Source: Larkinella terrae
GTDB taxonomy: Bacteria > Bacteroidota > Bacteroidia > Cytophagales > Spirosomataceae
Reading direction: 5' to 3'
Length of the DNA: 64,000 bases
Assembly (NCBI RefSeq): GCF_009668025.1
Contig: NZ_WJXZ01000001.1
Location: 873,004 to 937,003, forward strand
In this document: positions 22,361 through 49,171 of the stretch, in pieces
Layout of the letters: every line of letters begins with the position of its first letter
Numbering within the stretch: position 1 is the stretch's first letter
Position numbers and translations under genes: made by a program
Notes under the pieces: model-generated
The model's input: only the letters and a program-made list of their open reading frames with translations
Databases searched by the model: none
What the model was told of the DNA's origin: nothing

Positions 22361-23110
22361 TCAGTCCAGCCGTTTGATCCGGATATTTCGGAAGTAGACA
22401 TGGTTGCCGTGATCCTGGAGCAGAATGCGGCCGCTGTCGGCTTTGGCGTAATCCGGGTAATCCCTGAATTTGGATTGGGCCACTTTTTCCTGAAAATCCG
22501 GACTCATGCGGTCGTAGCTGGCGAGGAGTTTTCCGTTCAGCCAGTGTTCGATGTGTTTTCCGTTGACAACAATCCGAACCTTGTTCCACTGGCCGGGCGG
22601 CAGCAGTTTCTTGTTCCGGGGTGGATAAAGCAGGTAAACCGCACCGGTCGAGATGGTGCTGTTGGGCTCCGGTTTGACTTCGGGATAATTGAAATCGTCG
22701 ATGATCTGGTACTCGATGCCCATCAGCGAGGTCGCGTTCGTTTTAGCGTTTTTGATGCGGTTTACCAGGTATTTGATCCCGCTGTTGGCCGATTCGGTCA
22801 GGTTAAAATCCAGTTCCAGTTCAAAATTGCGGAAACTTTCGCGGGTAATAATGTCGCCACCGACGCGCCCGCTGGTCACCGCCAGCGTCCCGTTTTCAAT
22901 TTTCCAGCCTTTGTAAGGTATGGAATCGCTGGTCGAGTTTTGCCATTTGGTCAGGTCATGACCGTCGAAAAGCACCTCCCAACCTTTTTGCTGATTTTTG
23001 GAGCGGTTTTCGGGATGATCGGATTTTGTGCTGCCCGATAACACCAGCAAAACCGGGATAGCCAGCAGCAAGGGCGCAAGGACTACTTTTTGGAAAGGGA
23101 AAGGTTTCAT
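22361..23110 (-). CDS. Secreted DUF1080 (3-keto-disaccharide hydrolase-type) protein
   Basis: The ATG at 23110 gives 249 residues with a hydrophobic export segment (QKVVLAPLLLAIPVLLVLSG). The DUF1080 lectin-like jelly roll is clear: WEVLFDGHDLTKWQNS, then FELELDFNLTESANSGIKYL, IEYQIIDDF and HWLNGKLLASY. Known members hydrolyse or eliminate 3-keto-glycosides in the periplasm; others only bind. The gene is the last of the minus-strand fucose locus and follows the sulfatase by 16 bases. A second, larger DUF1080 protein lies at 30825. Enzymatic activity is inferred from family only. Confidence 0.88.
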   Translation of the reverse strand: MKPFPFQKVVLAPLLLAIPVLLVLSGSTKSDHPENRSKNQQKGWEVLFDGHDLTKWQNSTSDSIPYKGWKIENGTLAVTSGRVGGDIITRESFRNFELELDFNLTESANSGIKYLVNRIKNAKTNATSLMGIEYQIIDDFNYPEVKPEPNSTISTGAVYLLYPPRNKKLLPPGQWNKVRIVVNGKHIEHWLNGKLLASYDRMSPDFQEKVAQSKFRDYPDYAKADSGRILLQDHGNHVYFRNIRIKRLD

Positions 23111-23126
23111 TTTCAGCAAATACGGG

Positions 23127-24620
23127 TTAAATGGATTTCAGAACCGGGGCTAAATTGAGCGTGTCACCCAGTTGGTGCTGCTGGCGAATCAGGCGGTTTT
23201 TCAGGTCCTGCAAAACGGTTTTATAAGCCGCCTGACCGGCCAGATCCTGCATTTCGTTGGGATCTTTCCGCAGGTCGAACAGCAGGATTTTCGGGGCTTT
23301 GGGGTAAACGATTAATTTGTAACGGTCCGTCCGCACCATCCGTTGGCGGTCCATGTAACTGCCGTAAATTTCCGGATAAGCGCCCATCGCTTTTTTGTTT
23401 TTGATCAGTGGCAACAGGCTGTTGAAATAGACATGAGCCGGTTTTGGAATACTCACCAGATCGTACGTCGTCGCCATAATATCCTGTAGATAAACCTGTT
23501 GCTCTCGCTTCTCGCCTTTGGGAATCGTCGGGCCAACTACCACCAGCGGAGCCCGAACGCTGTGATCAAACTGGCTCTGTTTCCCCAGCAATCCGTGGTG
23601 CCCGACGGCCAAACCGTGGTCGGCCGTAAAAAAGATGTAGGTATTGTCTAGCTTGCCGGTTTGGGCCAAGGCCCGCAGAATTTTCCCAATCTGCGCATCC
23701 AGATGCGAAATGCTGGCGTAATATTCCTGAATGTTCTTTTTGACGGCGTAGGGCGTTCGCGGAAACGGCGCTAGCTGCTCATCCCGCAGGTCTTTTCCGC
23801 AACCCATCGCATCTTTGTACGGATACTCATCCTGATAGCTGACGGGTAGCCTGATCTGGTCCAGCGGATACAGATCGACGTACTTCCTGGGCGACTGCCG
23901 CGGGTCGTGCGGAGCATTGAACGCCAGATACATAAAAAAGGGGGCATCTTTCTGGCTGGCTTCTTTCAGATAGCCCACCGCATCATCGGCCAGCACCTCG
24001 CTCCAGTGTTTGCCGCCTTTCCAGAAACCGCCGTATTCTTCGTCCCAGGGTTGCCAGGTCGTATCCTGCGCAGACAAAGGGCGGTTATACCCCGCCGGAT
24101 TCTGGTTCGGCATCCCCGGCCGCTCATGCGTGACGTGGTCGAAAAGCCGTTTGACATCCGTGTTGACGTGCCATTTGCCGGTCATATAGGTTTCGTAACC
24201 CGCTTTTTTCAACTGCTGGCTCCAGAAACCGTCGGCGTTGACCAGCGCACTGAAATTCTTCTCGGCCTGTTGGGCCTTCCAGACCGGCAATCCCGTCACC
24301 AGCATTGCGCGGCTGGCGACGCAAACCGCGCCGTGCCACGCGCCCATGTTATACGCGTGGGTAAACGTGGTGCCCGCCCGAACCAGCGAGTCCAGCGTGG
24401 GCGTAATCACCACCGGATCACCCAGCGCCCGGATCGTGTTGTACCGCTGATCATCCGTAAAAATGAACAGAATGTTGGGTTTCCGAGGGGCGGCCTTTTT
24501 AGGGTCAACCGAAATCTGGCTGCTTGTCAGGAGGGCAAAGCCCAAAATCAATCCAATCCAGAGCTGGATTTTGGCGGATCGAAACCGGTTTTTGTAATTA
24601 CGCACATTCAATCTTATCAT
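23127..24620 (-). CDS. Secreted formylglycine-dependent sulfatase (first)
   Basis: The 497-residue protein has an N-terminal hydrophobic export segment (about residues 18-33). Metal ligands are seen in FIFTDDQR (Asp56, Asp57), and the active-site Cys100 lies in CVASR, the C-x-[P/A]-x-R motif that is converted to formylglycine. Later come ADHGLAVGHHGLLGK and a C-terminal LFDLRKDPNEMQDLA, typical of alkaline-phosphatase-superfamily sulfatases. It probably removes sulfate from the glycan of this locus, alongside the sulfatase at 34775, from which it differs in the signature (Ala in place of Pro). No maturation enzyme gene is in the window. Confidence 0.92.
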   Translation of the reverse strand: MIRLNVRNYKNRFRSAKIQLWIGLILGFALLTSSQISVDPKKAAPRKPNILFIFTDDQRYNTIRALGDPVVITPTLDSLVRAGTTFTHAYNMGAWHGAVCVASRAMLVTGLPVWKAQQAEKNFSALVNADGFWSQQLKKAGYETYMTGKWHVNTDVKRLFDHVTHERPGMPNQNPAGYNRPLSAQDTTWQPWDEEYGGFWKGGKHWSEVLADDAVGYLKEASQKDAPFFMYLAFNAPHDPRQSPRKYVDLYPLDQIRLPVSYQDEYPYKDAMGCGKDLRDEQLAPFPRTPYAVKKNIQEYYASISHLDAQIGKILRALAQTGKLDNTYIFFTADHGLAVGHHGLLGKQSQFDHSVRAPLVVVGPTIPKGEKREQQVYLQDIMATTYDLVSIPKPAHVYFNSLLPLIKNKKAMGAYPEIYGSYMDRQRMVRTDRYKLIVYPKAPKILLFDLRKDPNEMQDLAGQAAYKTVLQDLKNRLIRQQHQLGDTLNLAPVLKSI

Positions 24621-24760: not shown

Positions 24761-26875
24761 TTACTTCCAGACCAAACCCATGTTCTGGAAGAGAAAAGCA
24801 TACAGATAAGCCGAGGTTTCCAGCGATTTTTTCGTGCTGCTGGCCCCGTGGCCCGAGTTGACATCGACCCGGATCAGGAGCGGGCGGGGCGACGACGGCC
24901 CGGCTTTGGCCTGTAAGGTGGCCGCATACTTAAAGGAATGCGCGGGAATTACCCGATCGTCGTGGTCGGCGGTGGTCACCAGAATCGCCGGATAGGCAAC
25001 CCCGGTTTTGATGTTGTGCAGGGGCGAATAGGCGTAAAGATACCGGAACTCGTCGGGTTTATCGCTGCAACCAAACTCCGGTATCCAACTCCAGCCCACC
25101 GTAAATTTATGAAACCGCAGCATGTCCAGCACACCGATCGACGGAAACGCCACCCGGAAAAGTTCCGGTCGCTGGTTCATGACGGCCGCCAGCAGCAGCC
25201 CGCCGTTGGAGCCGCCCTGAATGGCCAGCCGTCCGGGCGAAGTGTATTTTTTCGCAATCAGGTATTCGGCGGCCGCAATAAAGTCGTCAAAAACGTTCTG
25301 TTTGTTGCCCTTCATGCCCTGTTCGTGCCACTTCTGGCCGTATTCGCCCCCTCCGCGCAAATTCGGCTGCACATAAACGCCCCCCTGATCGAGAAACGCA
25401 ATCCGTGTCGGGCTGAAGGTTGGTGTCCAGCTCACGCCAAAACCGCCGTAGGCATACATCAGCGTCGGGTTGGTTCCGTCCCGCTTCAAACCCTGCTTAT
25501 AAATGATGGACGCCGGAATTTTCGTGCCGTCCCGGCTGGGGTAAAACACCTGCTCCACCACATAATCCTCGGGATTGAACGAGACTTCCGGTTTCCGAAA
25601 AACCGCACTTTTGCGCGTGGCAATCTGGTACTGAAACAGCGTCGGCGGATAATTCAGCGAGGTGTACGTATAAAAAACGCGGGTATCGGTTTTGTCACCA
25701 CTGAATCCGGTGGCTGTTCCCAAAACCGGCAGACTGACCTCGTTCTCCAGTTGTCCCTTCAGGTTGTACACATACACATGCGTTGCAATATCCTTTGAGT
25801 ATGAGGTAAATACCTTTCCTCCGGCGGTGCCGACGGCCTGCAACGGCTCCGGTTTTTCGTCCAGAAACGGTTTCCAGCGTTGGGAGGTTCGTTCATACCA
25901 GACCAGTTTTCCATTGGGCGCATTTTCATTCGTTTCGATCAAAAACCGGTCGCCCTCGTTCGTCACCAGGTTGTATTTGAAATCCGAAAGATCATTCCCG
26001 ACCGCCGTGAACGCAGTTTCGCCTTTTTTTCTAATTCGCCAGCCGTTGCCGTCTTTCCCCTTGCCGCGATCCTTGATGTACAAAATGGCGTACTGTTCGT
26101 CTTCGGTCGTGAACATATTGTGGAACCGCTGCGGATTGGCCCGGTCCTCAAAAACCAGTTTGTCGCTGGTTTGCGGGGTTCCTATCTTGTGGTAAAACAC
26201 TTGGTGGTTTTCGTTTTTGGCGGCCATAATCGACCCCTGCGGTTCCGGATAGCGGCTGTAGTAAAAACCGTCATCCTGCCAGGCCGCGTTCGACAGCTTC
26301 ACCCATTCGATTTTATCGGACAGCAACTGCCGGGTTTTCAGGTCCATCACCCGGTATTCCTGCCAGTCGGAACCGCCCTTCGAAAACCCTAAAACCGCAT
26401 ACGCGCCCGTCTTCGAAAGACTGAAAACCGTCAGTTTCACCGTACCATCTTCAGAAAGCGTGTTCGGATCAATAACAATTTCGGGATTATTGGTCTGGCC
26501 TTTCTGCCGGTATAAAACCGCCTGGTTCTGCAAGCCGTCGTTCTTGTAAAAATACAAGTAATTGCCTTTCTGGCGTGGCCCTGAATACCGGGGATAATTG
26601 TTGACTTTTTCTAAATCCGAATAGATTTTGTCTTTGAACGGAATCTGGCTTAACTGCTGGTAAGTCAGTTCGTTCTGGGCCTTTACCCAGGCTGCGGTTT
26701 CCGGCGACCGGTCGTCTTCGAGCCAGCGGTACGGATCGGCCACCGTGACGCCGTGGTAATTGTCGGTTTGGTCAACCGTTTTGGTTGGCGGGTAAACCGG
26801 CTTTGTCTGGGCGCGACTGCTTGCCGACACCAGCACCAAAAAACCAACCGCCTGTATCCGCCAAAAATTGTTCAT
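24761..26875 (-). CDS. Prolyl oligopeptidase family serine peptidase (S9A), locus copy
   Basis: The 704-residue protein has a signal peptide (MNNFWRIQAVGFLVLVSASS) and is a close paralogue of the product of 8923-11043: NYHGVTVADPYRWLEDDRSP at the start of the mature protein, the nucleophile motif IQGGSNGGLLLA, ADHDDRVIPAHS and NSGHGASSTKK. It should act on peptides in the periplasm. Its place between the fucosidase and the sulfatase genes suggests co-expression with the fucose locus, perhaps to deal with glycopeptides or glycoproteins that come with the glycan (inference). Confidence 0.93.
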   Translation of the reverse strand: MNNFWRIQAVGFLVLVSASSRAQTKPVYPPTKTVDQTDNYHGVTVADPYRWLEDDRSPETAAWVKAQNELTYQQLSQIPFKDKIYSDLEKVNNYPRYSGPRQKGNYLYFYKNDGLQNQAVLYRQKGQTNNPEIVIDPNTLSEDGTVKLTVFSLSKTGAYAVLGFSKGGSDWQEYRVMDLKTRQLLSDKIEWVKLSNAAWQDDGFYYSRYPEPQGSIMAAKNENHQVFYHKIGTPQTSDKLVFEDRANPQRFHNMFTTEDEQYAILYIKDRGKGKDGNGWRIRKKGETAFTAVGNDLSDFKYNLVTNEGDRFLIETNENAPNGKLVWYERTSQRWKPFLDEKPEPLQAVGTAGGKVFTSYSKDIATHVYVYNLKGQLENEVSLPVLGTATGFSGDKTDTRVFYTYTSLNYPPTLFQYQIATRKSAVFRKPEVSFNPEDYVVEQVFYPSRDGTKIPASIIYKQGLKRDGTNPTLMYAYGGFGVSWTPTFSPTRIAFLDQGGVYVQPNLRGGGEYGQKWHEQGMKGNKQNVFDDFIAAAEYLIAKKYTSPGRLAIQGGSNGGLLLAAVMNQRPELFRVAFPSIGVLDMLRFHKFTVGWSWIPEFGCSDKPDEFRYLYAYSPLHNIKTGVAYPAILVTTADHDDRVIPAHSFKYAATLQAKAGPSSPRPLLIRVDVNSGHGASSTKKSLETSAYLYAFLFQNMGLVWK

Positions 26876-26902: not shown

Positions 26903-28069
26903 TCACCCAATCAGTTTGCCCACCTTGCGAAGCGTCTCGGCATCGCCTTGGTGAATGTCGCCTTCGGGCAGGGGGCCGGTATTCAGCAACAGGTTCATGT
27001 TCCGGCTTTTGGCATCCGCCAGCAAATCCATAACTTCCTGTACGCCAAGGTGTCGTCGTTTGTCGTTATCTTCGGGTTCATACGACCACGCGCCCCGCTG
27101 CAGGGTGCTGCACGTCTCGTTGTGCTTGCTGTGGTGCGCTTCCCAAACCCGCTTCGCCAGGGCCGCCGATTCCGCCCCAAAGTCGCTCTGAATCTGGTCG
27201 GCCAGCGAAGCCGCTTTCCGTTCGGGAGCCGCAAAATCTTCCGTTCCCGTCGCGCCCTGTTTGAAAGAAACCAGCGCGTGCGGACTCAGCGAGCGGATTT
27301 CCCGGTAAAATTCTTCCATCGGAAACAGGTCGGGCCGGGCATACAAACCGCGCACCGGATCGAACCAGATGCCCGCCGGATCATACTGCGTCACCAACTC
27401 CCGCAACTGCGCCTTGACGTAAGCGGTGTAGCGTTCCGCGTCCTTCTCGGTTTTGTAGCGGTACTCCGGCTGCGGTTGCGCATAGTCCGGTCGGAAATAT
27501 TGCCAGCCCGCGGTTTTCGCCGGGAAATAGGGATGATGCCAGTCGGCGGCTACGGAATAATACAAAAATAAACCCAATCCTTTTTTCTGACAGGCCGCGT
27601 TCAGCTCGCCCACCAGATCGCGTTTCGCGGCTGCGTGAACGCTGGTGTAATCCGTTTGCGCCGACTTGAACAGGCAAAAACCGTCGTGGTGTTTGGTCGT
27701 GATGTTCACGTATTTCATCCCGGATTCCAGCGCCAGGTCGGTGATGAAATCGGCATCGAACTTCCGGGCGGTAAACTCGTTCATGAGCTTGCGGTACTCC
27801 GCAACCGGCGTTTTTTCGAACAACTGCACCCAGGCCCCGCGCCCCCAGATGCTGTACAGGCCGTAATGCATGAACAACCCGTATTTTGCCTCGTTGAACC
27901 AGGCCAGCGAAGCGGCTTTCGGGTCTTTGGCGTACAAGTCCTTGTATTTCGAGAGGTAATTCGGAACAGTTTTTTCGGGATTTATGGATGCGGCTGCGAA
28001 CGGCGAAGGCAGCAACAACGAAGTTCCGGCGAGTGATAACGTCTTTATAAAATCGCGACGATCGGTCAT
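26903..28069 (-). CDS. Alpha-L-fucosidase, GH29 (Tat-type signal)
   Basis: The 388-residue protein begins with a twin-arginine-like signal (MTDRRDFIKTLSLAGTSLLL). The GH29 barrel is recognisable from WFNEAKYGLFMHYGLYS, VNITTKHHDGFCLF near residues 121-134 and YDPAGIWFDPV with Asp237 as the expected nucleophile. The length is close to a catalytic domain alone; there is no C-terminal beta domain, unlike the second fucosidase at 43662. It should release alpha-L-fucose from oligosaccharides in the periplasm. It lies 27 bases upstream of the S9 peptidase and 46 bases after the SGNH hydrolase. Confidence 0.92.
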   Translation of the reverse strand: MTDRRDFIKTLSLAGTSLLLPSPFAAASINPEKTVPNYLSKYKDLYAKDPKAASLAWFNEAKYGLFMHYGLYSIWGRGAWVQLFEKTPVAEYRKLMNEFTARKFDADFITDLALESGMKYVNITTKHHDGFCLFKSAQTDYTSVHAAAKRDLVGELNAACQKKGLGLFLYYSVAADWHHPYFPAKTAGWQYFRPDYAQPQPEYRYKTEKDAERYTAYVKAQLRELVTQYDPAGIWFDPVRGLYARPDLFPMEEFYREIRSLSPHALVSFKQGATGTEDFAAPERKAASLADQIQSDFGAESAALAKRVWEAHHSKHNETCSTLQRGAWSYEPEDNDKRRHLGVQEVMDLLADAKSRNMNLLLNTGPLPEGDIHQGDAETLRKVGKLIG

Positions 28070-28115: not shown

Positions 28116-28799
28116 TCAGGAAGGCAAAACGGAGCTGATCACATCCGTTACTTTTTGGCCCAGGAACCGGTTGCCTTCGGGTTTAAAATGCACATTGGAT
28201 GGCAATTGAAGCGTGGCTAATTCGGGCAAAACCGCGCTGTATAAATCGTTGATCCGGATTTTATTTTTCTTCATAATCTTCCGCGCTACCTCGTTGTATT
28301 TCAGCACATCTTCGGCTTTTCGGTACGGACCTTCGGGTAAATCGGGATACGGCGTTGAGGTGGCAAAAATGAGCTTTGCGCCAGTCACTTTTAAGCGCTC
28401 CACAATGATTTTTAAATTGGCTTCGTACTGTTTTAAATCGGATTGGTGTGGATCGTCGGGTTTGTTGCTGTTGATGCCTGTGACTGGATCGACGTGTTTT
28501 AAATCGTGCAATCCAAAGTTGAAATGAATCACCGTCCAGGGTTCACTGCCAATCCATTGATCGATGCGCTGAACACCCAGTTTGGTCCCCTGGCAGTTCT
28601 CGGCGGGCCGGGATACAACGGCCTTTCCTTCCAGTAGTTGCTTGACAACCGGCGTATAACCCACTGAAATAGAGTCGCCGAGGATCAGGACGCGCGGCAA
28701 CTCGGCAGCGGTTTGGGCCAGCAGGTTTGAAGCGCCGAGCGTCAGTCCACATGCTGCACCGATCGTTTGTAGGAAGGTTCTTCGTGATACATTTTTCAT
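28116..28799 (-). CDS. SGNH/GDSL hydrolase with Tat-type signal
   Basis: The 227-residue protein has a twin-arginine-like signal (KNVSRRTFLQTIGAACGLTL). The GDSL block is VLILGDSISVGYT with the nucleophile Ser at about residue 43, followed by NFGLHDLKH (block III region) and a C-terminal PSNVHFKPEGNRFLGQ carrying the expected Asp/His-type block V (here NVHF). It is probably a carbohydrate esterase that removes an acyl group from the glycan handled by this locus. The sialate-O-acetylesterase-like enzyme at 32679 is a second esterase in the same operon. Confidence 0.88.
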   Translation of the reverse strand: MKNVSRRTFLQTIGAACGLTLGASNLLAQTAAELPRVLILGDSISVGYTPVVKQLLEGKAVVSRPAENCQGTKLGVQRIDQWIGSEPWTVIHFNFGLHDLKHVDPVTGINSNKPDDPHQSDLKQYEANLKIIVERLKVTGAKLIFATSTPYPDLPEGPYRKAEDVLKYNEVARKIMKKNKIRINDLYSAVLPELATLQLPSNVHFKPEGNRFLGQKVTDVISSVLPS

Positions 28800-28812: not shown

Positions 28813-30804
28813 TTACTGAACGATTAATTTCCCCCGCATGACGCTGTAATGGCCTGGGAATGTGCACACGAAAGGATAGACACCCGGTTTTTCCGGAGCG
28901 GTGAAGTAAATCTTTTCGGAGCTTTCGGGCTGCAGTATGGCGGTGTGGAAAAGCACCAGATCCGATTGCGGTATATAATGAAAATCGGGCCCTTTTAAAC
29001 CCAGCGCCAACGACAATTGCCCGACTTTTTCAACCGCATCGTCCGGTTTGGTAATGACCAGATTATGCAGCATATCGTCGTTGTTATTGAACATCAGTTC
29101 AACTTTACTTCCGGCTTTTACTTTCAATTCCGTCTCATCGAACTGAAGCCCCGGTTTTGTGCCGACAGTCAGCGAAATTTCGGGGCCATATACCCACGAA
29201 TCCGGTTGTTTCGTGACTCGTTTCGGGTCTTTGTCAATATCGTAGGACACGCCGGTTTTCCGAGCGGCTGCCATCGCGGTGGCGGCTTTTCCAACCGGAA
29301 TGTTATTCAAGGTGTAATATCCCAGATTGTGCAGTAACGCCCGGCCATCGGCCGCTTGTAAACCGGCGGCTTTCACTTCGTGAATGTAGCCTTTCCGCAG
29401 CCCATGCACCACCAGTTTGACCGATAGCCGGTCTTTGGCCACGACGGCCTGATGGACCATGCAACTCTGCTGATTGATGATTTTGCTGCCGTACGTGCTC
29501 CAGTAGTGATACGTAAAACCGGTGATCTCGTATGAGCTTGTTTGTGAGGCCGTTGCGGGGTTGACGGGTTGCGTAAATTCCAGCACAAAACCGTCGGACT
29601 GCGCCTTGATGGTCTTGATTTCGAACGGTATTTTGCCGGTCCAGCGGAGCCGTTGCAGCCCGTACAACTCGGGACCTTTGGAGTTCCAGCCCCGGCTGGT
29701 CATCCCGACAAACATCGCGTGGTCGGTTCCCCATTTCATCCGGAAAACGCCCGACGAAAAACCTTCCCGAAACGGAAATGTAGCGCCCTGATATTCCCCC
29801 TTTACTTTTTCCAGAAATACCCGATTCACCTTGCTATGGCCCTGATCGCCAATGAAATACTGGCCGACAAAAGGGCCAAAACCGCCCCGGGTGGTATCGA
29901 TCAGGATGTCGGAAGTCGAAACGCCCAGCAGTCCGTGCGGAAACCAGATCGCCGGGAGTTTGAGCGCCGGAATGGTGGCCGCGACTTCGTGCATCGGTAA
30001 ATCGGGTGAGCTGGGCACATCGTCCACTTTCAGCGAAAGCGGAGAGCGCGGGTCGTTCGTCCATTTTAAACCGGCGGGATTGCCGGCAAAATCACCCGGT
30101 TTCAGGTGCGTCATCCGCCCGGAACCGACCCAATCACCCTGGTTTTCGGTGTAGAAAATATCACCGGCGGCATTGATGCCCAAACCGGCCGGGGAACGGA
30201 GCCCGGTTGCCAGCGGGGTCATTTCACCGGTTGGCGAGATTTTCAGCAGCCAGCCGCGCCATTTTGCCAGACTCGCTCCCCGACTGATCCACGAAAGATT
30301 CAGCGTCACCAGCATATTGCCGTCTTTGGTCACCACCGGCCCGTACGAATATTCGTGGTAATTGCCGGACAACGGCCAGGAATAAATTGCCTTGAAAGTG
30401 TCGGCTTTGCCGTCGTTGTCGCGGTCTTCCAGCCGGGTCAATTCCCCGCGCTGTGCCAGGTAAAAATGATTTCCAATGAACGCCAGTCCGAGGGCTTCGT
30501 GCAGGCCGGAAGCAAACTTTTTAAAGATGGGTTTCTCGTTTTTTTTCAAGTACGGATTTTCCAGAATCCAGACTTCGCCGTGGCGCGTACTAATGCCGAG
30601 CTGGTTTTTTCGATTGAAAGCCAAACCGCCCACTTCCAGTGCGATGTCCTTCGGAATGGGAATTGTTTCGATCTGGTAATACCGGGACTCTTCGGTCGTA
30701 TCAGGAGGAAAAAACCGCTCGGCCCGGCCTGGTTGGATCACCAAACCAAGCAGTAGGCCAAACAGCCAGCGGGAACCGAAATATTTTAATAGGTTGACTA
30801 TCAT
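28813..30804 (-). CDS. Propeller sugar-dehydrogenase-like protein fused to an azurin-type cupredoxin
   Basis: The 663-residue exported protein starts with a hydrophobic signal (WLFGLLLGLVIQPGRA). The N-terminal two thirds form a beta-propeller of glucose/sorbosone-dehydrogenase type (LGISTRHGEVWILENPY, LTRLEDRDNDGKADTF, GLRSPAGLGINAAGDIFYTE). The C-terminal about 120 residues are a type I copper domain: His580 in MLHNLV, Cys647, His652 and Met656 in FVCTFPGHYSVMRG. The Cys-to-His and Cys-to-Met distances (+5, +9) equal those of azurin. The fusion suggests a sugar oxidase that passes electrons to copper in the periplasm, but dehydrogenase activity is inferred, and a purely binding propeller is possible. 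Confidence 0.82.
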   Translation of the reverse strand: MIVNLLKYFGSRWLFGLLLGLVIQPGRAERFFPPDTTEESRYYQIETIPIPKDIALEVGGLAFNRKNQLGISTRHGEVWILENPYLKKNEKPIFKKFASGLHEALGLAFIGNHFYLAQRGELTRLEDRDNDGKADTFKAIYSWPLSGNYHEYSYGPVVTKDGNMLVTLNLSWISRGASLAKWRGWLLKISPTGEMTPLATGLRSPAGLGINAAGDIFYTENQGDWVGSGRMTHLKPGDFAGNPAGLKWTNDPRSPLSLKVDDVPSSPDLPMHEVAATIPALKLPAIWFPHGLLGVSTSDILIDTTRGGFGPFVGQYFIGDQGHSKVNRVFLEKVKGEYQGATFPFREGFSSGVFRMKWGTDHAMFVGMTSRGWNSKGPELYGLQRLRWTGKIPFEIKTIKAQSDGFVLEFTQPVNPATASQTSSYEITGFTYHYWSTYGSKIINQQSCMVHQAVVAKDRLSVKLVVHGLRKGYIHEVKAAGLQAADGRALLHNLGYYTLNNIPVGKAATAMAAARKTGVSYDIDKDPKRVTKQPDSWVYGPEISLTVGTKPGLQFDETELKVKAGSKVELMFNNNDDMLHNLVITKPDDAVEKVGQLSLALGLKGPDFHYIPQSDLVLFHTAILQPESSEKIYFTAPEKPGVYPFVCTFPGHYSVMRGKLIVQ

Positions 30805-30824: not shown

Positions 30825-32663
30825 TTACCAGATCAGCGTATAATCGATGGCATACTGACCCGCTTTGGCAGCTGAAAACAGCAATTCCTGGGTGTTACCA
30901 GTCTGGTGAATGGTCGGTTTCAGGTTCGGCGAGTTCAGCACCAGGTAATAAGCTTTGTCGTCAATGGCGTAGGAACCGTCGGGCAGCAACTCGATGGATT
31001 TTCCGGAAGCGATCCGATACTGGAAACCGTCTTTGCTGGTTAAGGTCACTTTTCGGTTCAGGCTTCGCTCTTTCGCTGAAGGACTTAGTTTGTCTGAAAT
31101 GGTTACACCAAGGCAGGTATACTGAAATGTGGGCAAACCGCTCCTGTCCAGCGTGTACTCCGAAAACCGGAAGGCACTCTTTTGGTCCCAATCCGGGACA
31201 ACCGCCTTACCCGCAACACTGCGTAAATCCGTACCCGCAGCAAATTTCTGCACCATTCCCAGCGGTATACCAATCTGCTGATTTCCCCGGCGATTCCACA
31301 TGGGTGTCGCGTCGAGAAAACCGCCACTCCAGACCTGAAACAGGCGTCCTTCCTGCAAATCGACCGTAAAATGAATGCCTTCGGGTGTACCAATTGACAG
31401 ACAGTGCGTGCGCCGTGTTTCGCCATCGTCCATAAAGGTTCGCTGCAAAACTGCCTGCTGCGGGTCAGTGTCGATAAGGATCGGTTCGACGGGCGGTTCG
31501 TGAAAAACGGAACCCGCTGCGTGCAACGGCTGGATCGTCATGCCCGGCCCTTCGACGTACAGCGCCAGGCCCTGCCGCCAACCGATAAACTTGTTGTAAA
31601 TGAGCGTAAAGGGAACCGCCCCGGCTTTGGCCGCGAACGTCTGGATGGCTTCCTGCTCAAAACCGTGCACGCCGTCGTGGAGCATCACCGTATCCTTGTC
31701 GATGATCAGCAGCCCACCCCCACCGGTTTGCAGTTTGAACAAATAGGTGCCGGTTTTCGGGAAATTGAACTGGCCCTGATACGCCAGCAAAAAGATGTCT
31801 TTCTGGCTGGCGGAATGGTAGGAAATTGAATCGATTTTTCGCTCACCTACCGAGACAAGCGACTGATTTTGAAAGATTTCGCCGGGGGATTTGTATTCTT
31901 TAACAACCAGATTTGATATAGCCAGCGGTTTTCCCTCGTCGAGTTTGTAGGCGATTGCTTTCAGGGCCACGCGCCCGTGATTGCCCTGAATCATCAGCGG
32001 GCCGAGCGGTTTTTCGTCCTTGAAAGCGCCCGAGCGCGTGGGGCCGCTCACCTCAAAATCCTTCTGAACCAGCACGCCGTTGACGTACACCTCGACAAAC
32101 CGGGCGTTGGCGATCTTTTTCCCCTGGCTGTCGAACTTCGGGGCCTTGAACCAGACGCGAATGTGCTGCCACAAACCGGGCGCTTTGCTGGCGTTGATCC
32201 GGGGTGCCGAACCCTCGTAACCCAGGTTGGTCACGGTATCGGTGCGTTGGTAAATCCCGCCCAAATCGCCGTATTTCGGTTTTTCGCGCTTTCCCCAGCT
32301 ATCCTGCAACTGCAGTTCGTAGCGCCCCTGAAAATAGAGGCCGGAATTGGAGTTCTTAGCCATCATAATGTCCGCTTCCAGTTCCATATCGCCGTGTTCG
32401 AACCGGGTAAAAAGATGCCCCCGGTTTTGCGGGTCCGAGAGGTTGGCCAGCACGCCCGTTCCGGGAAAACCCTCCAGCGCCTGCTCGACCTGCCGATCGG
32501 CAAACGCATTGCCGACGATTTTCCAGTTGGCGGTGGTGGGCCGGAAAGCCGAAAGGTCGGTGAGCGGCAGGGGTGTTAAGGGCAGACGCTTCGCCTTTTC
32601 CTGCGAATAGCTTTCCGAAAAACCGGCCATCAGCACCCCAACCATCAGTAACAAATTTCTCAT
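30825..32663 (-). CDS. DUF1080 protein with PA14-like domain
   Basis: The 612-residue protein has a signal peptide (MRNLLLMVGVLMAGFSESYS). A DUF1080 jelly roll covers about residues 40-230 (FTRFEHGDMELEADIMMAKN, NSGLYFQGRYELQLQDSWG). A PA14-like carbohydrate-binding domain follows (GQFNFPKTGTYLFKLQTGGG, FTLIYNKFIGWRQGLALYVE), and then about 200 residues without a recognised family. PA14 domains often bind fucose- or galactose-containing glycans, which suits the locus. It probably cleaves or binds a glycoside, possibly a 3-keto form, at the cell surface or in the periplasm. Neighbours lie 15 and 20 bases away, so it is in the operon. Confidence 0.82.
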   Translation of the reverse strand: MRNLLLMVGVLMAGFSESYSQEKAKRLPLTPLPLTDLSAFRPTTANWKIVGNAFADRQVEQALEGFPGTGVLANLSDPQNRGHLFTRFEHGDMELEADIMMAKNSNSGLYFQGRYELQLQDSWGKREKPKYGDLGGIYQRTDTVTNLGYEGSAPRINASKAPGLWQHIRVWFKAPKFDSQGKKIANARFVEVYVNGVLVQKDFEVSGPTRSGAFKDEKPLGPLMIQGNHGRVALKAIAYKLDEGKPLAISNLVVKEYKSPGEIFQNQSLVSVGERKIDSISYHSASQKDIFLLAYQGQFNFPKTGTYLFKLQTGGGGLLIIDKDTVMLHDGVHGFEQEAIQTFAAKAGAVPFTLIYNKFIGWRQGLALYVEGPGMTIQPLHAAGSVFHEPPVEPILIDTDPQQAVLQRTFMDDGETRRTHCLSIGTPEGIHFTVDLQEGRLFQVWSGGFLDATPMWNRRGNQQIGIPLGMVQKFAAGTDLRSVAGKAVVPDWDQKSAFRFSEYTLDRSGLPTFQYTCLGVTISDKLSPSAKERSLNRKVTLTSKDGFQYRIASGKSIELLPDGSYAIDDKAYYLVLNSPNLKPTIHQTGNTQELLFSAAKAGQYAIDYTLIW

Positions 32664-32678
32664 ATCATTGTCAATCAG

Positions 32679-34658
32679 TTACTTAAATTTCACCTCCGCC
32701 GTTATGCCTTTCCAGGTATCGGTGCGGAATGGAGCCGCCGGAAACCCTTCTTTGTTGTACAGATTCGCTTCGATGTTGTCGTCGGACCAGCCGTAGCGCA
32801 CGGCTACCGGATTACTCACCTGGTCGCACCAGACGACCACTTTATCGCCCTGAATCTCCGCCTTCGCCCAATGGAATTTCTGATCGGAACCGGCTACTTC
32901 AAAGCCTTTGAGGTACGCATATTTGTCCGAAGCGGTCAGGCCGCTCCCGGTTTGCCCGAACGTCAGCGTCACCTTGTTTCCGCTGATCTGTTGCGATTGA
33001 TACACCGGGCCGCCGGGTAAAACCGGTTGCTGATAAACGGTTTTTAACGCGCTGTACGCCAGCCGTTTGCCGACATCCTGCTTGTTTTTCGGGTGAATAT
33101 CGTTCGTTTCGCCAATATCGGAAGTAACCGCCATCCCGGTGTTCGGTACGGTCGTGAGCGTCATCGCCTGTGCTTCCCGCAGCTCGGCCCAGGTGCTGCC
33201 TTTTTCGCTGGTGCCACCGCTCGCGCCATAACTCGCCAGTTGCACGAACAGGAAGGGAAAGTCTTCACCCCAGCGTTTCCGCCAGTCATTGATTAGAAGT
33301 GGAAACGACTTCCGGTACTGGTACGCCCGCCCGGCGTTCGATTCGCCCTGGTACCAGATGACGCCCTGCATGGCGAAAGGAATCAGCGGAGCCACCATCG
33401 CATTGTACAGAATGGTTCCGGCGACGTTGGCCCCCGTAAACTGGTTGTTGTCCACGGACGTCTCCACGCGGTATTTCCAGTCACCGGCCAGCGGTTGTTC
33501 GTACGAATCCCGGGTGATTTTCAACTGCTCGGCTTTGCCGCTAAAACCGCCGATGCTGCCGAGGTCTTCGATGCGGACGGCAATGACATTTTTACCGGCT
33601 TTCAGCACATTCGGCGGAATGATGTAGGTACGGCCTTCCGGTACTTTTTTGGTCGATTCGCCCACTTTGACGCCGTTGACGTAGGTCCGGTCGAAGTCGT
33701 CGATGCTGCACAGATTCAGCACCATGCTTTGCCCGGCCCATTCGGCGGGGAGCGTAAATTCTTTCCGAACCCACACAACGCCGTCCAGACCCGAGAGAAT
33801 TTTAAGATCAAAATAGCCCGGCACGGCCATCGTCTGCCAGTTCGAATCGTCGAGCGAAGCGCCCGACCAGCTTTGAACGGTTTCGGCGTCCGGAAAACCG
33901 CCCTGTTGCTGAATGATCACCTCATCCAGTTTTTTCTTCCGTGATTTGCTCAGTTCTTCGAGCGAAACCGGCATGCTGGCCAGCGGTTCCTTAAACTCAT
34001 CAAAGCTGTTCATGGCCTCCCGGCTGATCCAGGATTCGACCTGCGTGCCACCCCAGGAGGTGTTCAGTAAGCCAATCGGCACCTGCATTCGGTGGTAGAT
34101 TTCGCGGGCGAAGAAATAGGCCACCGCCGAAAAATTACCAACGGTTTCGGGCGTCGTGGCCTGCCATTCCCCGCCGGTTACATCGTCTTTGGGTGTCAAA
34201 CTTTTGTCGTGCGGAACCTTGAAATGCCGGATTTGCGGGAAATTGGCGGCTTTTTTCTCCTCCTCCGCTTTCGCCGACCGGTTGACCAGCATTTCCATGT
34301 TCGATTGACCGGAACAAATCCAGACCTCACCCACCAGCACGTCGTCCAGCGTCAGGGTGTTTTTTTTGCCAGCAACCACGAGCTGATACGGCCCACCAGC
34401 TTCGGTCGGGTCGAGCCGGATCAGCCATTTGCCGTCTTTGTCGGCCTTAGCGGTTTTGGTCTGCCGCTGCGGTCCGGCCCCGATGAATTGGACCGTTACT
34501 TTTTCCCCGGCGGCCGCCCAACCCCAGACCGGGATGGGTTTCCGGCGTTGCAACACCATGTGAGAACCGAAAATCCGGGGCAAACGGACCTCGGCCCAGG
34601 CTTCAAAAACCGTCAGTGCCAGCAGCAAAACCGCACTAGTTCGTAGGAAAGCTTTCAT
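32679..34658 (-). CDS. Sialate O-acetylesterase-like carbohydrate esterase
   Basis: The 659-residue protein has a signal peptide (MKAFLRTSAVLLLALTVFEA) and the classical layout of the family: N-terminal beta domain (PRIFGSHMVLQRRKPIPVWG), GEVWICSGQSNMEM with nucleophile Ser119, an inserted jelly-roll domain (DDFDRTYVNGVKVGESTKKV), and QGVIWYQGESNAGRAYQYRK. Despite the family name, enzymes in polysaccharide loci usually remove acetyl groups from neutral or acidic sugars; with sulfatases and fucosidases around it, acetylated sulfated fucan is a reasonable target (inference). The start is 38 bases from the repeat at 34697. Confidence 0.92.
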   Translation of the reverse strand: MKAFLRTSAVLLLALTVFEAWAEVRLPRIFGSHMVLQRRKPIPVWGWAAAGEKVTVQFIGAGPQRQTKTAKADKDGKWLIRLDPTEAGGPYQLVVAGKKNTLTLDDVLVGEVWICSGQSNMEMLVNRSAKAEEEKKAANFPQIRHFKVPHDKSLTPKDDVTGGEWQATTPETVGNFSAVAYFFAREIYHRMQVPIGLLNTSWGGTQVESWISREAMNSFDEFKEPLASMPVSLEELSKSRKKKLDEVIIQQQGGFPDAETVQSWSGASLDDSNWQTMAVPGYFDLKILSGLDGVVWVRKEFTLPAEWAGQSMVLNLCSIDDFDRTYVNGVKVGESTKKVPEGRTYIIPPNVLKAGKNVIAVRIEDLGSIGGFSGKAEQLKITRDSYEQPLAGDWKYRVETSVDNNQFTGANVAGTILYNAMVAPLIPFAMQGVIWYQGESNAGRAYQYRKSFPLLINDWRKRWGEDFPFLFVQLASYGASGGTSEKGSTWAELREAQAMTLTTVPNTGMAVTSDIGETNDIHPKNKQDVGKRLAYSALKTVYQQPVLPGGPVYQSQQISGNKVTLTFGQTGSGLTASDKYAYLKGFEVAGSDQKFHWAKAEIQGDKVVVWCDQVSNPVAVRYGWSDDNIEANLYNKEGFPAAPFRTDTWKGITAEVKFK

Positions 34659-40900: not shown

Positions 40901-41290
40901 TTTTTCGATGATCGAAGCTTCGAACAGTTTCTTTTTCCGAACGTAAATCTGGGAGTTGACGCGCAGAAACTGCAGATTGGCGTCTTTCGACAGGATTCGC
41001 AACAGCGATGCCAGGGATAAATTCTTGTCGGAAATCGTGACCAGCTGGTTTTTGTCGAGCGTTTCGCCGTTGTAAGCAAACGAAAACTGGGTGCGCTCGC
41101 TGATGATGTTGAGGGCATCCTCCAGTCGCACATTTTTGAGGGAAAGATTCAGGTAAATTTCTTCCAGGCTTTTACTCTGGTACGGACTGGTTGCCGCCAT
41201 AATCCGACTGCCGGGGAGCAACAGGATCAAAATCCCGAGTGCGCTCAGTCTGACCAGCTGCCGGATTTGGTTAAGTAAGGTTCTTTTCAT
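37925..41290 (-). CDS. SusC/RagA-type TonB-dependent transducer-transporter with STN domain
   Basis: The 1121-residue protein has a signal segment, an STN (secretin/TonB N-terminal) domain at about residues 50-118 (LEDALNIISERTQFSFAYNG, LQFLRVNSQIYVRKKK), a CarboxypepD_reg-like domain at 138-212, EEIVVVGYGEQKK at 217-229, plug motifs (LQGKVTGLQVVQNSGQPGDD) and a barrel ending FATYPQVRMFTAGLKVKF. The STN domain is what touches FecR-type anti-sigma factors, and a FecR gene lies directly upstream. So this transporter should both import glycan fragments and signal their presence to the sigma factor at 42679. Confidence 0.96.
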   Translation of the reverse strand: MKRTLLNQIRQLVRLSALGILILLLPGSRIMAATSPYQSKSLEEIYLNLSLKNVRLEDALNIISERTQFSFAYNGETLDKNQLVTISDKNLSLASLLRILSKDANLQFLRVNSQIYVRKKKLFEASIIEKSLSDGPVTIQGTVKDQTGAVLPGANILIKGKTQGTVTDGDGKFQLQLEGGKGTLVVSSIGYVSEEVVVSGNRTVLAIVLNTDIKSLEEIVVVGYGEQKKVNLTGSVATVAADELVKRSTANVENLLQGKVTGLQVVQNSGQPGDDGAIMTIRGLGTFSDAGAAPLVLVDGVVGNLTNLNADNIESISVLKDAASASIYGARGANGVILVTTKKGKAGSFNVDYRADFQLHQPTRMPKLVTNSADFMTYFNAARARSGQAPLYTQTEIDTYRNATDRTKYPNFDWIDFIVGNASAQQHYLSVNGGSEKTTYNFSTGYLNQNGIAGGHSYKRYNFNLNVDSKVNRILRVGANIGLVKKDIMEPPYTDSDYMLLVYSMNPTNGPYVPDGSGHYSGAYRQGVPSNRNPLAVINSGSVRYEKYNLTAQSYVDINITPDLTWGVKGAVNYSDDFTKVHEHPVDAYYFSDGTYQNNGNPTRLGITDRFDQSILTTLYSTFNYKKTFGKDHFVTGLLGYNQESFKNRYLQGARQKFPTDDLMELNAGSTDNQSTAGTSYEWAIQSLFGRFTYDYKERYLLETNFRYDGTSRIQQDNRWGFFPSLSAGWRVSNEEFLKSQSWIDNLKLRASWGQLGNQNIGNYPYQDILSVTTYPFDVLQQGVVQTRLTDKNLRWETTTITDIGLDFSFKKRIFSGSIDWYNKITDGIIYAIEVPGSVGLTGPTVNYAKMQNQGIELNLSHSNKIGELRYDINANFSKNANKVLKVKAPFYDNNNTIQEGLPWMSNYLIEWAGIFQSQEEIDKGPAHPYNPKPGDLKFKDQNGDNKIDGNDRVVVPGAYPKFYYGGGVNAFWKNFDFSIFFQGVYGNNTYVDRWGIDPFTQGSAPTLEFAQNAWTPENKSTTHPAMYLNGYGPDNGLRSTYFLMDASYLRIKNLVLGYSFPKTITSKIRMKDLRIYLSSDNLATFTKYPGADPERTGTGRQRFATYPQVRMFTAGLKVKF

Positions 41291-45453: not shown

Positions 45454-46777
<1,324 letters not shown>

Positions 46778-46779
46778 CG

Positions 46780-47118
46780 TCAGGCGTTTAAGCGAAAAAT
46801 TGGTTTCATCTTCGCCCAGTGTTCGCCCGGTTGCGCTTCGGCCAGCCGTTGCTGAAAACCGTCCATCAAAACCGCCCATTCAGCTTGCCGGGGAAGTTTA
46901 CCGATTTCGTTAAACGCATCGTTCAGGTCAACTCCTTCGGCGGTTTCGACAATCATAAATAACCGGGTGCCGATGCGGTAAATCTGCATATCCGTAATGC
47001 CGCCCGCCCGGATGCCCGCCGGAATTTCCGGCCAGATGTGTTCCGGCTGGTGGAGGTGTTCGTACTGGGCAATACCTTCCGGATTGTCTTTCAGGTCGAG
47101 GGCCAGGCAGGTGCGCAT
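46780..47118 (-). CDS. L-rhamnose/L-fucose mutarotase-type protein
   Basis: The 112-residue protein matches the RhaM family: EHLHQPEHIWPEIPAGIRAG, with the His/Trp-Pro-Glu active-site block, and ITDMQIYRIGTRLFMIVETA. RhaM interconverts alpha and beta pyranose forms of L-rhamnose. In this place, between a fucose-type dehydrogenase and a fucose permease-type transporter, action on L-fucose is more likely (inference). Gaps of 2 and 48 bases to its neighbours mark it as part of one operon. Confidence 0.88.
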   Translation of the reverse strand: MRTCLALDLKDNPEGIAQYEHLHQPEHIWPEIPAGIRAGGITDMQIYRIGTRLFMIVETAEGVDLNDAFNEIGKLPRQAEWAVLMDGFQQRLAEAQPGEHWAKMKPIFRLNA

Positions 47119-47121: not shown

Positions 47122-47151
47122 TTTATTGAGTGATTCGTTTATTGAGTGATT
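47122..47151. repeat. Short direct repeat
   Basis: TTTATTGAGTGATT occurs twice (47122-47135 and 47138-47151) with a 16-base period in the gap between the SDR stop and the mutarotase start. It may be a slippage product; no function is suggested. Confidence 0.7.
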
Positions 47152-47166
47152 GAGCGAATTGCCTGT

Positions 47167-47940: not shown

Positions 47941-47944
47941 CGGT

Positions 47945-49171
47945 TTAGGGTTTCAGATCGCTGCTGCTGCCCGGTTCGGTCGGGACCTGGTAAAAACCGT
48001 CCCGGATTTGAACCGGATTGACAAAATACGATTGTAAATGCGGAATGTGTTCGAGAAACAGGTTTTCGTGCTCCATGGCGATATGGTTGTAAAGGACCAA
48101 ATGCTGGTGAATCTGCCCCATATCGCCCACGTGCGGCACCACCGGAATACCGTATTTTTTGGCCAACAGGCTGATTGTCAGAAACTCGGAAATGCCGCCT
48201 ACCCGAACCGCATCGACCTGGCAAAACGCCATTGCCCCGGCCTGCAGGAAGTTTTTGAAAATCACCTTGTTGGGAATGTGCTCGCCGGTCGCAACTTTGA
48301 AAGGTGCAATGGCGTCGGCGATGGCGCGGTGACCCAGCACATCGTCGGGATGCGTGGGTTCTTCGATCCAATACGGTCGAATGCTGCCCAGTTTCCGGCA
48401 AATTTCCAGTGCTTCCGGCACGTTCCAGCGCTGGTTGGCGTCGAGCATGATGGTGGCCGCATCCCCGGCGGTTTCCCGGATCAGGGTCGCTCGTCGGAGG
48501 TCGCGTTCCGGATCGTCGGACCCCACCTTGAGCTTCATGGCCGTAAAACCGGCATCAACGGCTTTGCGCGTGTTGGCGACGATACGCTCATCCGAAAAAT
48601 TGAACCAGCCGATGGACGTATCGTAACCTTTGTAACCGGTTTTGAGAATACCGATTCGTTGCGGGCCGGTTTTTCGCGCTTCGGTCAGGAGTTGAATGGC
48701 CTGCGGACGGGTTAGTTCTTCTTCGAGATAACTCAAATCCAGGGTATTAACGACTTCTTCGGGCGTCAGATCGAGCAGCAGTTGCCAAAGCGGTTTTTGC
48801 CGGGATTTGGCCCAGAGGTCGTAACAGGCGTTGGTGATAGCGGCCAGCGCCAGATGCACAACCCCTTTGTGCGGACCCAGCCAGCGGAACGAAGGCGAAT
48901 CGACAATGGAGCGATACGTCCGGCCAAAGTCGGCCATCAATGTTTCAATCTCCTGACCAACAAGTGGTTCCGAAAGATATTGAATAGCCTTGCAAACCAA
49001 ATCCGTTCCCGCCCCCAGCGTAAACGCCAGACCGGTTCCTTCCACGGCAGTATCGGTTTTCAGGATACAAACCGCGTACGCGTATTGAGGCATGGTGTGC
49101 GTGGCGTCGGAACCGGCACCGTCGGCAAGGTCAAATCGGCGGTCCTGAACCTGAATGGAGGTAATGTGCAT
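47945..49171 (-). CDS. L-fuconate dehydratase (enolase superfamily)
   Basis: The 408-residue protein carries the mandelate-racemase-subgroup residues: Lys213-x-Lys215 in MKLKVG, metal ligands Asp244 (MLDANQRWN), Glu270 (YWIEEPTHPDD) and Glu297 (ATGEHIP), and His347 in VPHVGDMGQ. As far as I recall, the characterised Xanthomonas L-fuconate dehydratase has the same residues with an offset of four to five. It turns L-fuconate into 2-keto-3-deoxy-L-fuconate in the cytoplasm. It is the first gene of the catabolic operon 49171-45470 and lies opposite the AraC regulator. No lactonase gene is in the window. Confidence 0.93.
   Translation of the reverse strand: MHITSIQVQDRRFDLADGAGSDATHTMPQYAYAVCILKTDTAVEGTGLAFTLGAGTDLVCKAIQYLSEPLVGQEIETLMADFGRTYRSIVDSPSFRWLGPHKGVVHLALAAITNACYDLWAKSRQKPLWQLLLDLTPEEVVNTLDLSYLEEELTRPQAIQLLTEARKTGPQRIGILKTGYKGYDTSIGWFNFSDERIVANTRKAVDAGFTAMKLKVGSDDPERDLRRATLIRETAGDAATIMLDANQRWNVPEALEICRKLGSIRPYWIEEPTHPDDVLGHRAIADAIAPFKVATGEHIPNKVIFKNFLQAGAMAFCQVDAVRVGGISEFLTISLLAKKYGIPVVPHVGDMGQIHQHLVLYNHIAMEHENLFLEHIPHLQSYFVNPVQIRDGFYQVPTEPGSSSDLKP

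What the first reader, a model, noticed from the sequence alone, without database searches (positions are those of the whole stretch)
22361..49171. Large minus-strand locus for a sulfated fucose-containing glycan with built-in fucose oxidation
Seen: STN-type SusC, SusD, two sulfatases with intact C-x-[P/A]-x-R motifs, two GH29 fucosidases, two esterases, sigma/FecR, and next to them a FucP-type transporter, mutarotase, SDR and L-fuconate dehydratase. Known: these families together degrade fucose-rich sulfated glycans such as fucoidan or animal and algal sulfated fucans. Inferred: one regulated pathway from surface capture to cytoplasmic fuconate. No endo-acting fucanase (GH107, GH168 and similar) is visible, so the initial depolymerising step must be elsewhere or be done by one of the unassigned proteins.
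Basis: partly seen in the sequence, partly recalled or inferred. Interest (0 to 1): 0.7.

Follow-up and report, generated by a model that had tools for sequence, protein, structure and literature searches.

The report
Sulfated fucose-glycan locus with redox pair
This bacterial gene cluster most likely strips sulfate and fucose from a sulfated sugar polymer and burns the fucose, and inside it sits a widely conserved two-gene unit, not described in the papers searched, that may break the sugar chain by first oxidising it.

Summary
22361-43374 (-) is a sigma/FecR/SusC/SusD locus with two formylglycine-type sulfatases, GH29, SASA and GDSL esterases. Candidates for the remaining pathway steps lie on another contig. 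Relatives of the SusC/SusD pair sit beside fucose genes in 11 of 11 loci examined, but a close relative carries the sulfatase locus without the fucose operon, so 'one regulated pathway' is too strong. The propeller gene has the DUF1080-PA14 gene directly upstream in 79 of the 80 best homologous loci, and sulfatases lie nearby more often than chance (12 of 27 genera; at most 4.4 expected). Folds resemble sugar dehydrogenases and DUF1080 enzymes, including 3-keto-glycoside eliminases. I propose oxidise-then-cleave chemistry as the missing chain-breaking step. No activity, cofactor or substrate is shown. The locus is a new variant of a known kind.

The parts
22361..23119 (-). DUF1080 (3-keto-disaccharide hydrolase family) protein, secreted type
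   Evidence: PF06439, 169.3 bits, cut-off 26.8; 90% identical gene in G008
23127..24620 (-). S1-type sulfatase, motif CVASR
   Evidence: PF00884, 161.5 bits; motif; nearest solved 7p24 mucin-desulfating sulfatase, E 2.4e-36
24761..26875 (-). Prolyl oligopeptidase family (S9), apparent signal peptide by eye
   Evidence: PF02897 and PF00326; sequence
26903..28069 (-). GH29 alpha-L-fucosidase, twin-arginine-like N-terminus by eye
   Evidence: PF01120, 211.9 bits; nearest solved 8z63, E 2e-105
28116..28799 (-). GDSL-type esterase
   Evidence: PF13472, 39.6 bits, cut-off 32.9
28813..30804 (-). Beta-propeller with C-terminal blue-copper (cupredoxin) domain; putative envelope sugar dehydrogenase
   Evidence: PF00127 43.3 bits; copper-ligand pattern invariant in 34 of 34; model pLDDT 85.3; fold matches 2ism, 3das, auracyanin
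30825..32663 (-). DUF1080-PA14 protein, conserved partner of the propeller; putative keto-glycoside-cleaving enzyme
   Evidence: PF06439 77.5 bits, PA14 24.4 bits; fold matches 4qhz, 8v31, 9fbe; partner in 79 of 80 loci
32679..34658 (-). SASA-type acetylesterase
   Evidence: PF03629, 70.8 bits
34775..36163 (-). S1-type sulfatase, motif CSPTR
   Evidence: PF00884, 207.5 bits; motif; nearest solved 6bia sulfatase, E 1.4e-59, then iota-carrageenan sulfatase 6b0k
36413..37906 (-). SusD-type glycan-binding lipoprotein
   Evidence: PF07980, 154.5 bits
37925..41290 (-). SusC-type TonB-dependent transporter with STN domain
   Evidence: PF07715, PF13715, PF07660
41420..42478 (-). FecR-type anti-sigma factor
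   Evidence: PF04773 and PF16344
42679..43374 (-). ECF-type sigma factor
   Evidence: PF08281, PF04545
43662..45428 (-). GH29 alpha-L-fucosidase with F5/8 type C domain
   Evidence: PF01120, 252.5 bits; nearest solved 6gn6, E 2.7e-73
45470..46879 (-). FucP-type sugar symporter
   Evidence: TIGR00885 292.5 bits, cut-off 280.4; gluP cut-off also passed
46780..47118 (-). Mutarotase, rhaM family
   Evidence: PF05336, 89.3 bits
47167..47940 (-). SDR, putative L-fucose dehydrogenase
   Evidence: Nearest solved HSD17B14, E 6.4e-51
47945..49171 (-). L-fuconate dehydratase (ENOSF1 type)
   Evidence: 4a35 E 9.4e-107, 2hne and 1yey E 2e-105; only close copy in the genome
49358..50266 (+). AraC/cupin regulator, divergent from the fucose unit
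   Evidence: PF12833, PF07883; AraC homologue beside the fucose operon also in G008, G234, G005, G173, G039

Best explanation
A locus for a sulfated, O-acylated, fucose-bearing glycan, made of two transcription units. (1) Sigma/FecR/SusC/SusD unit: SusC/SusD take up oligosaccharide; in the envelope two sulfatases, SASA and GDSL esterases and GH29 remove sulfate, acyl groups and alpha-L-fucose. (2) Fucose unit under a divergent AraC: GH29 frees fucose, the FucP-type protein imports it, mutarotase and SDR make L-fuconolactone, and L-fuconate dehydratase makes 2-keto-3-deoxy-L-fuconate; an amidohydrolase, a second SDR and an FAH hydrolase encoded on contig C6 finish to pyruvate and lactate. Within unit 1 the propeller-cupredoxin protein and its DUF1080-PA14 partner most likely act in sequence: the propeller oxidises a sugar hydroxyl (C3 by analogy) and hands electrons through its blue-copper domain to the respiratory chain, and the DUF1080 protein then cleaves the keto-sugar's glycosidic bond, supplying the chain-breaking step for which no known endo-fucanase is seen in the locus. 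Step confidences: sulfated fucose-glycan target 0.85; fucose oxidation 0.85; the pair works as one unit 0.85; the propeller is a dehydrogenase 0.65; oxidise-then-cleave 0.4. Shown: families, gene order, conservation. Inferred: chemistry, substrate, localisation, regulation.
For: Families and whole order kept in G008. Fucose genes beside the SusCD relatives in 11 of 11 loci. Dehydratase = ENOSF1/FucD type, single close copy; SDR nearest HSD17B14, shown to be L-fucose dehydrogenase in PMC11293516 (passages); other steps on C6. Pair: DUF1080-PA14 directly upstream, same strand, in 79 of 80 loci, median gap 12 bp; partner trees correlate, r 0.86, 0 of 999 permutations, 79 sequences. Sulfatase link: 12 of 27 genera against at most 4.4 expected, tail 0.0003; 18 of 61 operon neighbours are sulfatases, 6 SASA, 3 GH29, 3 ThuA, 2 GH95. 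Redox: copper ligands invariant; same propeller with a CxxCH domain instead of cupredoxin in 3 of 12 relatives looked at; fold matches sugar dehydrogenases. DUF1080-PA14: PF06439 in 31 of 31, fold matches incl. 3-keto-glycoside eliminase/hydratases 8v31 and 9fbe. Precedent: periplasmic LacABC 3-dehydrogenase with DUF1080 (PMC9007349, passages).
Against: No activity, cofactor or substrate is shown. Profile comparison of the propeller with GSDH proteins is not significant (probability 3.6%, E 0.012 locally; shifting, poor alignments otherwise). No PqqE passes its cut-off in the genome (66.8 against 381.35 bits). Propellers are a common fold: nitrous oxide reductase and PknD also match, and model residues 148-150, next to a candidate catalytic histidine, have pLDDT under 50. 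By profile, 8v31 is not significant (E 0.12). The pair has no other same-strand neighbour within 200 bp in 16 of 34 loci, so it is not tied to glycan operons. The DUF1080 signature is degenerate in several lone copies. The sulfatase test does not correct for relatedness, and the SusCD loci were not a random sample. No promoter pattern match was found to support the unit boundaries.
Confidence: 0.6

Rival explanations
1. Conventional locus: the DUF1080 proteins hydrolyse the unoxidised glycan directly, as endo-enzymes, and the propeller-cupredoxin protein has no part in cleavage.
For: PMC9007349 (passages) names a DUF1080 protein, THTE_1561, as a characterised endo-xanthanase/lichenase; PMC5673643 (passages) proposes DUF1080 proteins for the xanthan backbone from expression data. 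Closest solved relatives are annotated only as putative glycosyl hydrolases.
Against: The DUF1080-PA14 gene keeps the redox partner in 79 of 80 loci, and partner trees correlate, which a stand-alone hydrolase would not need.
Confidence: 0.25
2. The propeller-cupredoxin protein oxidises freed monosaccharide (L-fucose or a relative) at C1 outside the cytoplasm, feeding electrons to respiration, like AA12 enzymes; the DUF1080-PA14 protein handles another step or only binds glycan.
For: Fold matches to AA12 structures 6jt5, 6i1q and 6h7t. AA12 of Trichoderma prefers L-fucose (PMC6881810, passages); the Coprinopsis enzyme oxidises L-fucose and L-galactose and has a fused cytochrome domain (PMC4332668, passages).
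Against: The locus has an intracellular SDR for the same oxidation. The pair is often outside fucose loci. Cofactor not established. It does not explain the strict tie to DUF1080-PA14.
Confidence: 0.2
3. The locus serves an animal-type sulfated fucosylated glycoprotein (mucin-like), not an algal or microbial fucan.
For: A peptidase of the S9 family with an apparent signal peptide is in the operon in the window, G008 and G154. The CVASR sulfatase's nearest solved relative is labelled mucin-desulfating (7p24).
Against: No GH20, GH33 or other mucin-type glycosidase among the 13 genes of the unit. In G030 no peptidase of this type was found on the 26.6 kb contig, and a GH95 gene follows the sulfatase. 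Nearest outside loci with matching sulfatases, GH29 or SASA are L084, L085 and L100, from an uncultured Flaviramulus, Agaribacillus and an 'ErkenSummer' bin; that these are marine and lake organisms is recalled.
Confidence: 0.2

Closest known systems
Loci for fucose-containing sulfated polysaccharides, e.g. the GH29 types in Verrucomicrobiota (PMC8857213, passages)
   Same: GH29 with S1 sulfatases and PF03629 (SASA) genes; target fucose-containing sulfated polysaccharide
   Different: Here SusC/SusD with sigma/FecR, and inside the operon the propeller-cupredoxin/DUF1080-PA14 pair, a second DUF1080 protein and an S9 peptidase; fucose goes by the fuconate route, not (as reported there) a microcompartment
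L-fucose oxidation pathway (dehydrogenase, lactonase, fuconate dehydratase, second dehydrogenase, hydrolase; PMC11293516, passages)
   Same: Dehydratase of the ENOSF1/FucD type and an HSD17B14-like SDR side by side with a fucose transporter
   Different: Split over two loci: window (first and third step) and contig C6 (candidates for the others)
LacABC periplasmic 3-dehydrogenase with DUF1080 3-ketoglycoside hydrolase (PMC9007349, passages)
   Same: An envelope dehydrogenase encoded next to a secreted DUF1080 protein
   Different: Other dehydrogenase (propeller with cupredoxin), DUF1080 fused to PA14 and a conserved C-terminal region, linked to sulfatases and fucosidases rather than lactose
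PQQ-dependent sugar dehydrogenases: sGDH, Adh and AA12 (structures 1cq1, 3das, 6jt5)
   Same: Propeller fold; an electron-transfer domain may be fused, as the haem domain of the Coprinopsis AA12 enzyme (PMC4332668, passages)
   Different: No significant profile match to GSDH, cofactor unknown, blue-copper domain instead of haem

Membership tests
Polysaccharide utilisation locus | Tandem SusC/SusD with glycan-active enzymes | tested here: met
   37925-41290 and 36413-37906 with GH29, sulfatases, esterases
Fucan/fucose-containing sulfated polysaccharide locus | Sulfatases and GH29 or GH95 in one operon | tested here: met
   Two S1-type sulfatases and GH29 in one run of genes
Fucan/fucose-containing sulfated polysaccharide locus | Endo-fucanase (GH107, GH168 and similar) | tested here: not met
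   All 13 genes of 22361-43374 fall in other Pfam families; the rest of the genome was not searched
Fucan/fucose-containing sulfated polysaccharide locus | Growth on or induction by sulfated fucan | not testable with these tools
   Needs culture
L-fucose oxidation pathway | L-fuconate dehydratase | tested here: met
   4a35 and 2hne/1yey at E about 1e-105
L-fucose oxidation pathway | L-fucose dehydrogenase | tested here: inconclusive
   SDR nearest HSD17B14, but SDR specificity cannot be read from similarity
L-fucose oxidation pathway | Lactonase, second dehydrogenase, final hydrolase | tested here: inconclusive
   Amidohydro_2 and FAA_hydrolase genes side by side on C6 with an SDR, FucP and mutarotase; functions inferred
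DUF1080 (3-keto-glycoside hydrolase/eliminase) | PF06439 domain above cut-off | tested here: met
   77.5 and 169.3 bits, cut-off 26.8; 31 of 31 aligned relatives of the PA14 type match
DUF1080 (3-keto-glycoside hydrolase/eliminase) | Close relation to an enzyme proven on keto-sugars | tested here: inconclusive
   Foldseek E 6.9e-6 (8v31) and 2.6e-5 (9fbe), behind structures of unknown activity; profile E 0.12 for 8v31
PQQ sugar dehydrogenase (sGDH/AA12) | Propeller fold of the family | tested here: met
   Best Foldseek matches 2ism (E 1.2e-13, TM by target 0.69) and 3das (E 2.1e-11); other propellers match too
PQQ sugar dehydrogenase (sGDH/AA12) | Sequence-profile homology to GSDH | tested here: not met
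   No PF07995 hit; hhalign not significant
PQQ sugar dehydrogenase (sGDH/AA12) | PQQ and calcium binding residues; PQQ supply | tested here: inconclusive
   H150 and R203 are invariant and by eye resemble sGDH H144 and R228, but no alignment supports this; no PqqE over cut-off, though uptake is possible
Type-1 copper protein | His, then Cys-x4-His-x3-Met ligands | tested here: met
   H580, C647, H652, M656 invariant in 9 of 9 and 34 of 34; auracyanin match

The most novel reading that the evidence does not exclude
The propeller-cupredoxin/DUF1080-PA14 pair is a widespread, undescribed envelope system of Bacteroidota that breaks sulfated glycans by oxidation followed by elimination or hydrolysis of the keto-sugar, wired to respiration through copper or haem c; in this locus it does the work of an endo-fucanase.
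Probability: 0.3. Interest if true: 0.85.

Novelty: new variant of a known kind. Interest (0 to 1): 0.6.

Why it matters
How bacteria open sulfated fucans is a bottleneck in carbon turnover, and here no known endo-enzyme is seen in the locus. If the pair oxidises and then cleaves such chains, many sulfatase loci that carry it (Cyclobacterium, Agaribacillus, Flavicella, Lunatimonas and others) become readable, and a two-protein assay would test it directly. If it does something else, it is still a strictly conserved redox pair of unknown function.

Tried and rejected
Choline sulfatase: the NCBI model scores far below its cut-off. The nearest solved sulfatases are mixed, so no subfamily is claimed.

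PQQ as cofactor: suggested by the fold, but profile comparison failed and no PqqE passes its cut-off, although 18 GSDH matches were found in the genome. Not claimed.

Pair specific to fucans: rejected; in 16 of 34 loci it has no other same-strand neighbour within 200 bp (6 of these 16 still hold a sulfatase in the flank).

Single regulated unit: rejected after G154. The promoter pattern gave 0 matches (1.08 expected by chance), so it says nothing.

Papers. Searches returned listings. 'Not described' rests on (sulfatase with DUF1080: 2 papers, each naming DUF1080 once; cupredoxin with polysaccharide utilization loci: 0; none of six terms in one fucoidan paper); subscription journals are mostly not held. 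Passages only were seen of PMC9007349, PMC11293516, PMC6881810, PMC4332668, PMC8857213, PMC10628242 and PMC5673643. GH107, GH168, SulfAtlas and the sources of 8v31 and 9fbe are recalled or known from PDB titles, not read.

Rows dropped: 15 of 76 operon neighbours (contig-end fragments and short ones); 13 of 80 loci (8 near-identical Arenibacter; 5 with a broken, split or missing partner). Of SusD hits ranked 5 to 15 I fetched 7. The 80 loci are the best of at least 483. Sulfatase counts per genome were capped, so I used the larger first-look candidate numbers. Tree support values were not examined.


Full report
What is there. The window lies at G000:C1:873004-937003 of a 7.85 Mb genome. Four genes of the same run went unnamed: DUF1080 (22361-23119), prolyl oligopeptidase (24761-26875), a beta-propeller with a blue-copper domain (28813-30804) and DUF1080-PA14 (30825-32663). 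An AraC/cupin gene (49358-50266, +) faces away from the fucose genes.

Two units, not one. A gap of 287 bp separates the fucose unit (49171 down to 43662) from the sigma gene. In G008 the 18 minus-strand genes and AraC are all kept, 76-99% identical. In G154 the SusCD-sulfatase block is kept (60-76% identity for the glycan-processing and SusCD genes, FecR 55%, sigma 64%), without the end DUF1080 gene and with an extra sulfatase; no fucose operon lies in the 10 kb held upstream of sigma. In G030 SusCD, both sulfatases, the pair and the GDSL gene are kept at 52-67%, with a tannase-family esterase and a GH95 gene; no fucose operon was seen on its 26.6 kb contig. More distant SusCD relatives (about 43-49% identity) lie beside AraC, dehydratase, SDR and FucP in G234, G005, G173 and G039, and beside GH95 in G239, G212 and G018. 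Counting the window, G008, G154 and G030, 11 of 11 loci carry a fucose operon, GH29 or GH95, and 6 of 11 carry the operon. They come from the top of the SusD ranking in 222 genomes of the family, not a random draw, and I measured no background rate. They support a fucose-containing target and suggest that the sulfatase set is an addition in this branch.

Fucose oxidation. The dehydratase matches ENOSF1 and L-fuconate dehydratase equally well and is the only close copy in the genome; the next of 13 matches is 30% identical over part of it. The SDR's best solved relative is HSD17B14, which PMC11293516 identifies as L-fucose dehydrogenase (passages); this is an argument from family only. An Amidohydro_2 gene and an FAA_hydrolase gene lie side by side on C6, with a second FucP, mutarotase, SDR and GH29. 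So the pathway can be completed, but from two loci. The transporter also passes the broader gluP cut-off.

The pair. The propeller-cupredoxin gene has the DUF1080-PA14 gene directly upstream on the same strand in 79 of the 80 best homologous loci of the public genome collection, median gap 12 bp, range -164 to 101. The exception is L143, a Runella. The 80 are the best of at least 483 relatives. Tree distances of the partners correlate over 79 sequences (r 0.86, 0 of 999 permutations); shared species history contributes. The window's copies are closer to the marine-type set than to lone copies of its own family. Relatives of the propeller are found in 71 of 99 related genomes, with 9 matches in the window's own genome.

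Link to sulfated glycans. 29 of 80 loci hold a sulfatase in the held flank. Taking the first listed locus of each of 27 named genera, 12 have one; an upper bound for chance, from each genome's first-look sulfatase candidates, is 4.4, tail 0.0003. Relatedness is not corrected. Among 61 of 76 same-strand operon neighbours, sulfatase is the commonest family (18), then SASA (6), GH29 (3), ThuA (3) and GH95 (2). In L085 the pair lies with ThuA, two GH95 genes, SASA, sulfatases and a second propeller of the DUF7133 family with a cytochrome c domain. Against this, in 16 of 34 loci the pair has no other same-strand neighbour within 200 bp; 6 of those still have a sulfatase in the flank.

Chemistry. 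The propeller model (pLDDT 85.3) matches glucose dehydrogenase 2ism, PQQ aldose dehydrogenase 3das, sGDH and AA12, and auracyanin for its C-terminal domain; nitrous oxide reductase, also a propeller with a cupredoxin, and PknD match as well. Of 12 relatives whose match had stopped short of the cupredoxin, 9 have a cupredoxin after all and 3 (G009, G013, G044; propellers 56-57% identical) carry a CxxCH domain instead. An exchangeable electron-carrier domain is good evidence for a redox enzyme. The DUF1080-PA14 model (pLDDT 86.6) matches DUF1080 structures, mostly of unknown activity, and further down the 3-keto-glycoside eliminase/hydratases 8v31 and 9fbe. Periplasmic 3-dehydrogenase with DUF1080 is a proposed partnership for lactose, backed by mutant fitness data (PMC9007349, passages), and beta-elimination of C3-oxidised glucosides is reported for an enzyme not called DUF1080 (PMC10628242, abstract start and passages). 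Hence oxidise-then-cleave. Against it: no significant profile link to GSDH, no PqqE over cut-off, 8v31 at E 0.12 by profile, and a degenerate DUF1080 signature in several lone copies. AA12 enzymes act on free L-fucose, which feeds a rival reading, and a DUF1080 protein is named as an endo-xanthanase/lichenase, which feeds another.

Verdict. As a fucose PUL it is a solid, mildly unusual member of a known kind. The redox pair inside it is the part worth following: its existence, order and sulfatase link are shown; its chemistry is a hypothesis.

Noticed in passing
window 17408-22281 (+): A second SusC/SusD pair ends just beside the finding on the other strand (SusC without STN hit); its target is unknown.
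   Followed up: no
window 50308-57472 (+): A GH32 gene, a 404 aa gene without Pfam match and a hybrid two-component regulator follow the AraC gene: a likely separate fructan-type locus. It is not present in the held stretch beside AraC in G008 (L031).
   Followed up: partly
window 5977-8619 (-) and 8890-11043 (+): A second SASA protein with Ig-like domain and a second prolyl oligopeptidase, 56-57% matched by the peptidases of the G154 and G008 loci.
   Followed up: no
L175, L176, L180 (G009, G013, G044): The same propeller carries a c-type haem domain in place of cupredoxin: an exchange of electron carrier on one enzyme family.
   Followed up: partly
L036-L039, DUF1080-PA14 gene: The DUF1080 signature is degenerate while the C-terminal region, which has no Pfam name, stays conserved; that region may be the functional core in these copies.
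   Followed up: no
L073-L079, L082, L083 (Arenibacter) and L106, L115, L122 (Zobellia): The pair lies about 2-3 kb from a contig end in these assemblies, as if beside a repeated element; cause not examined.
   Followed up: no
   Followed up: no
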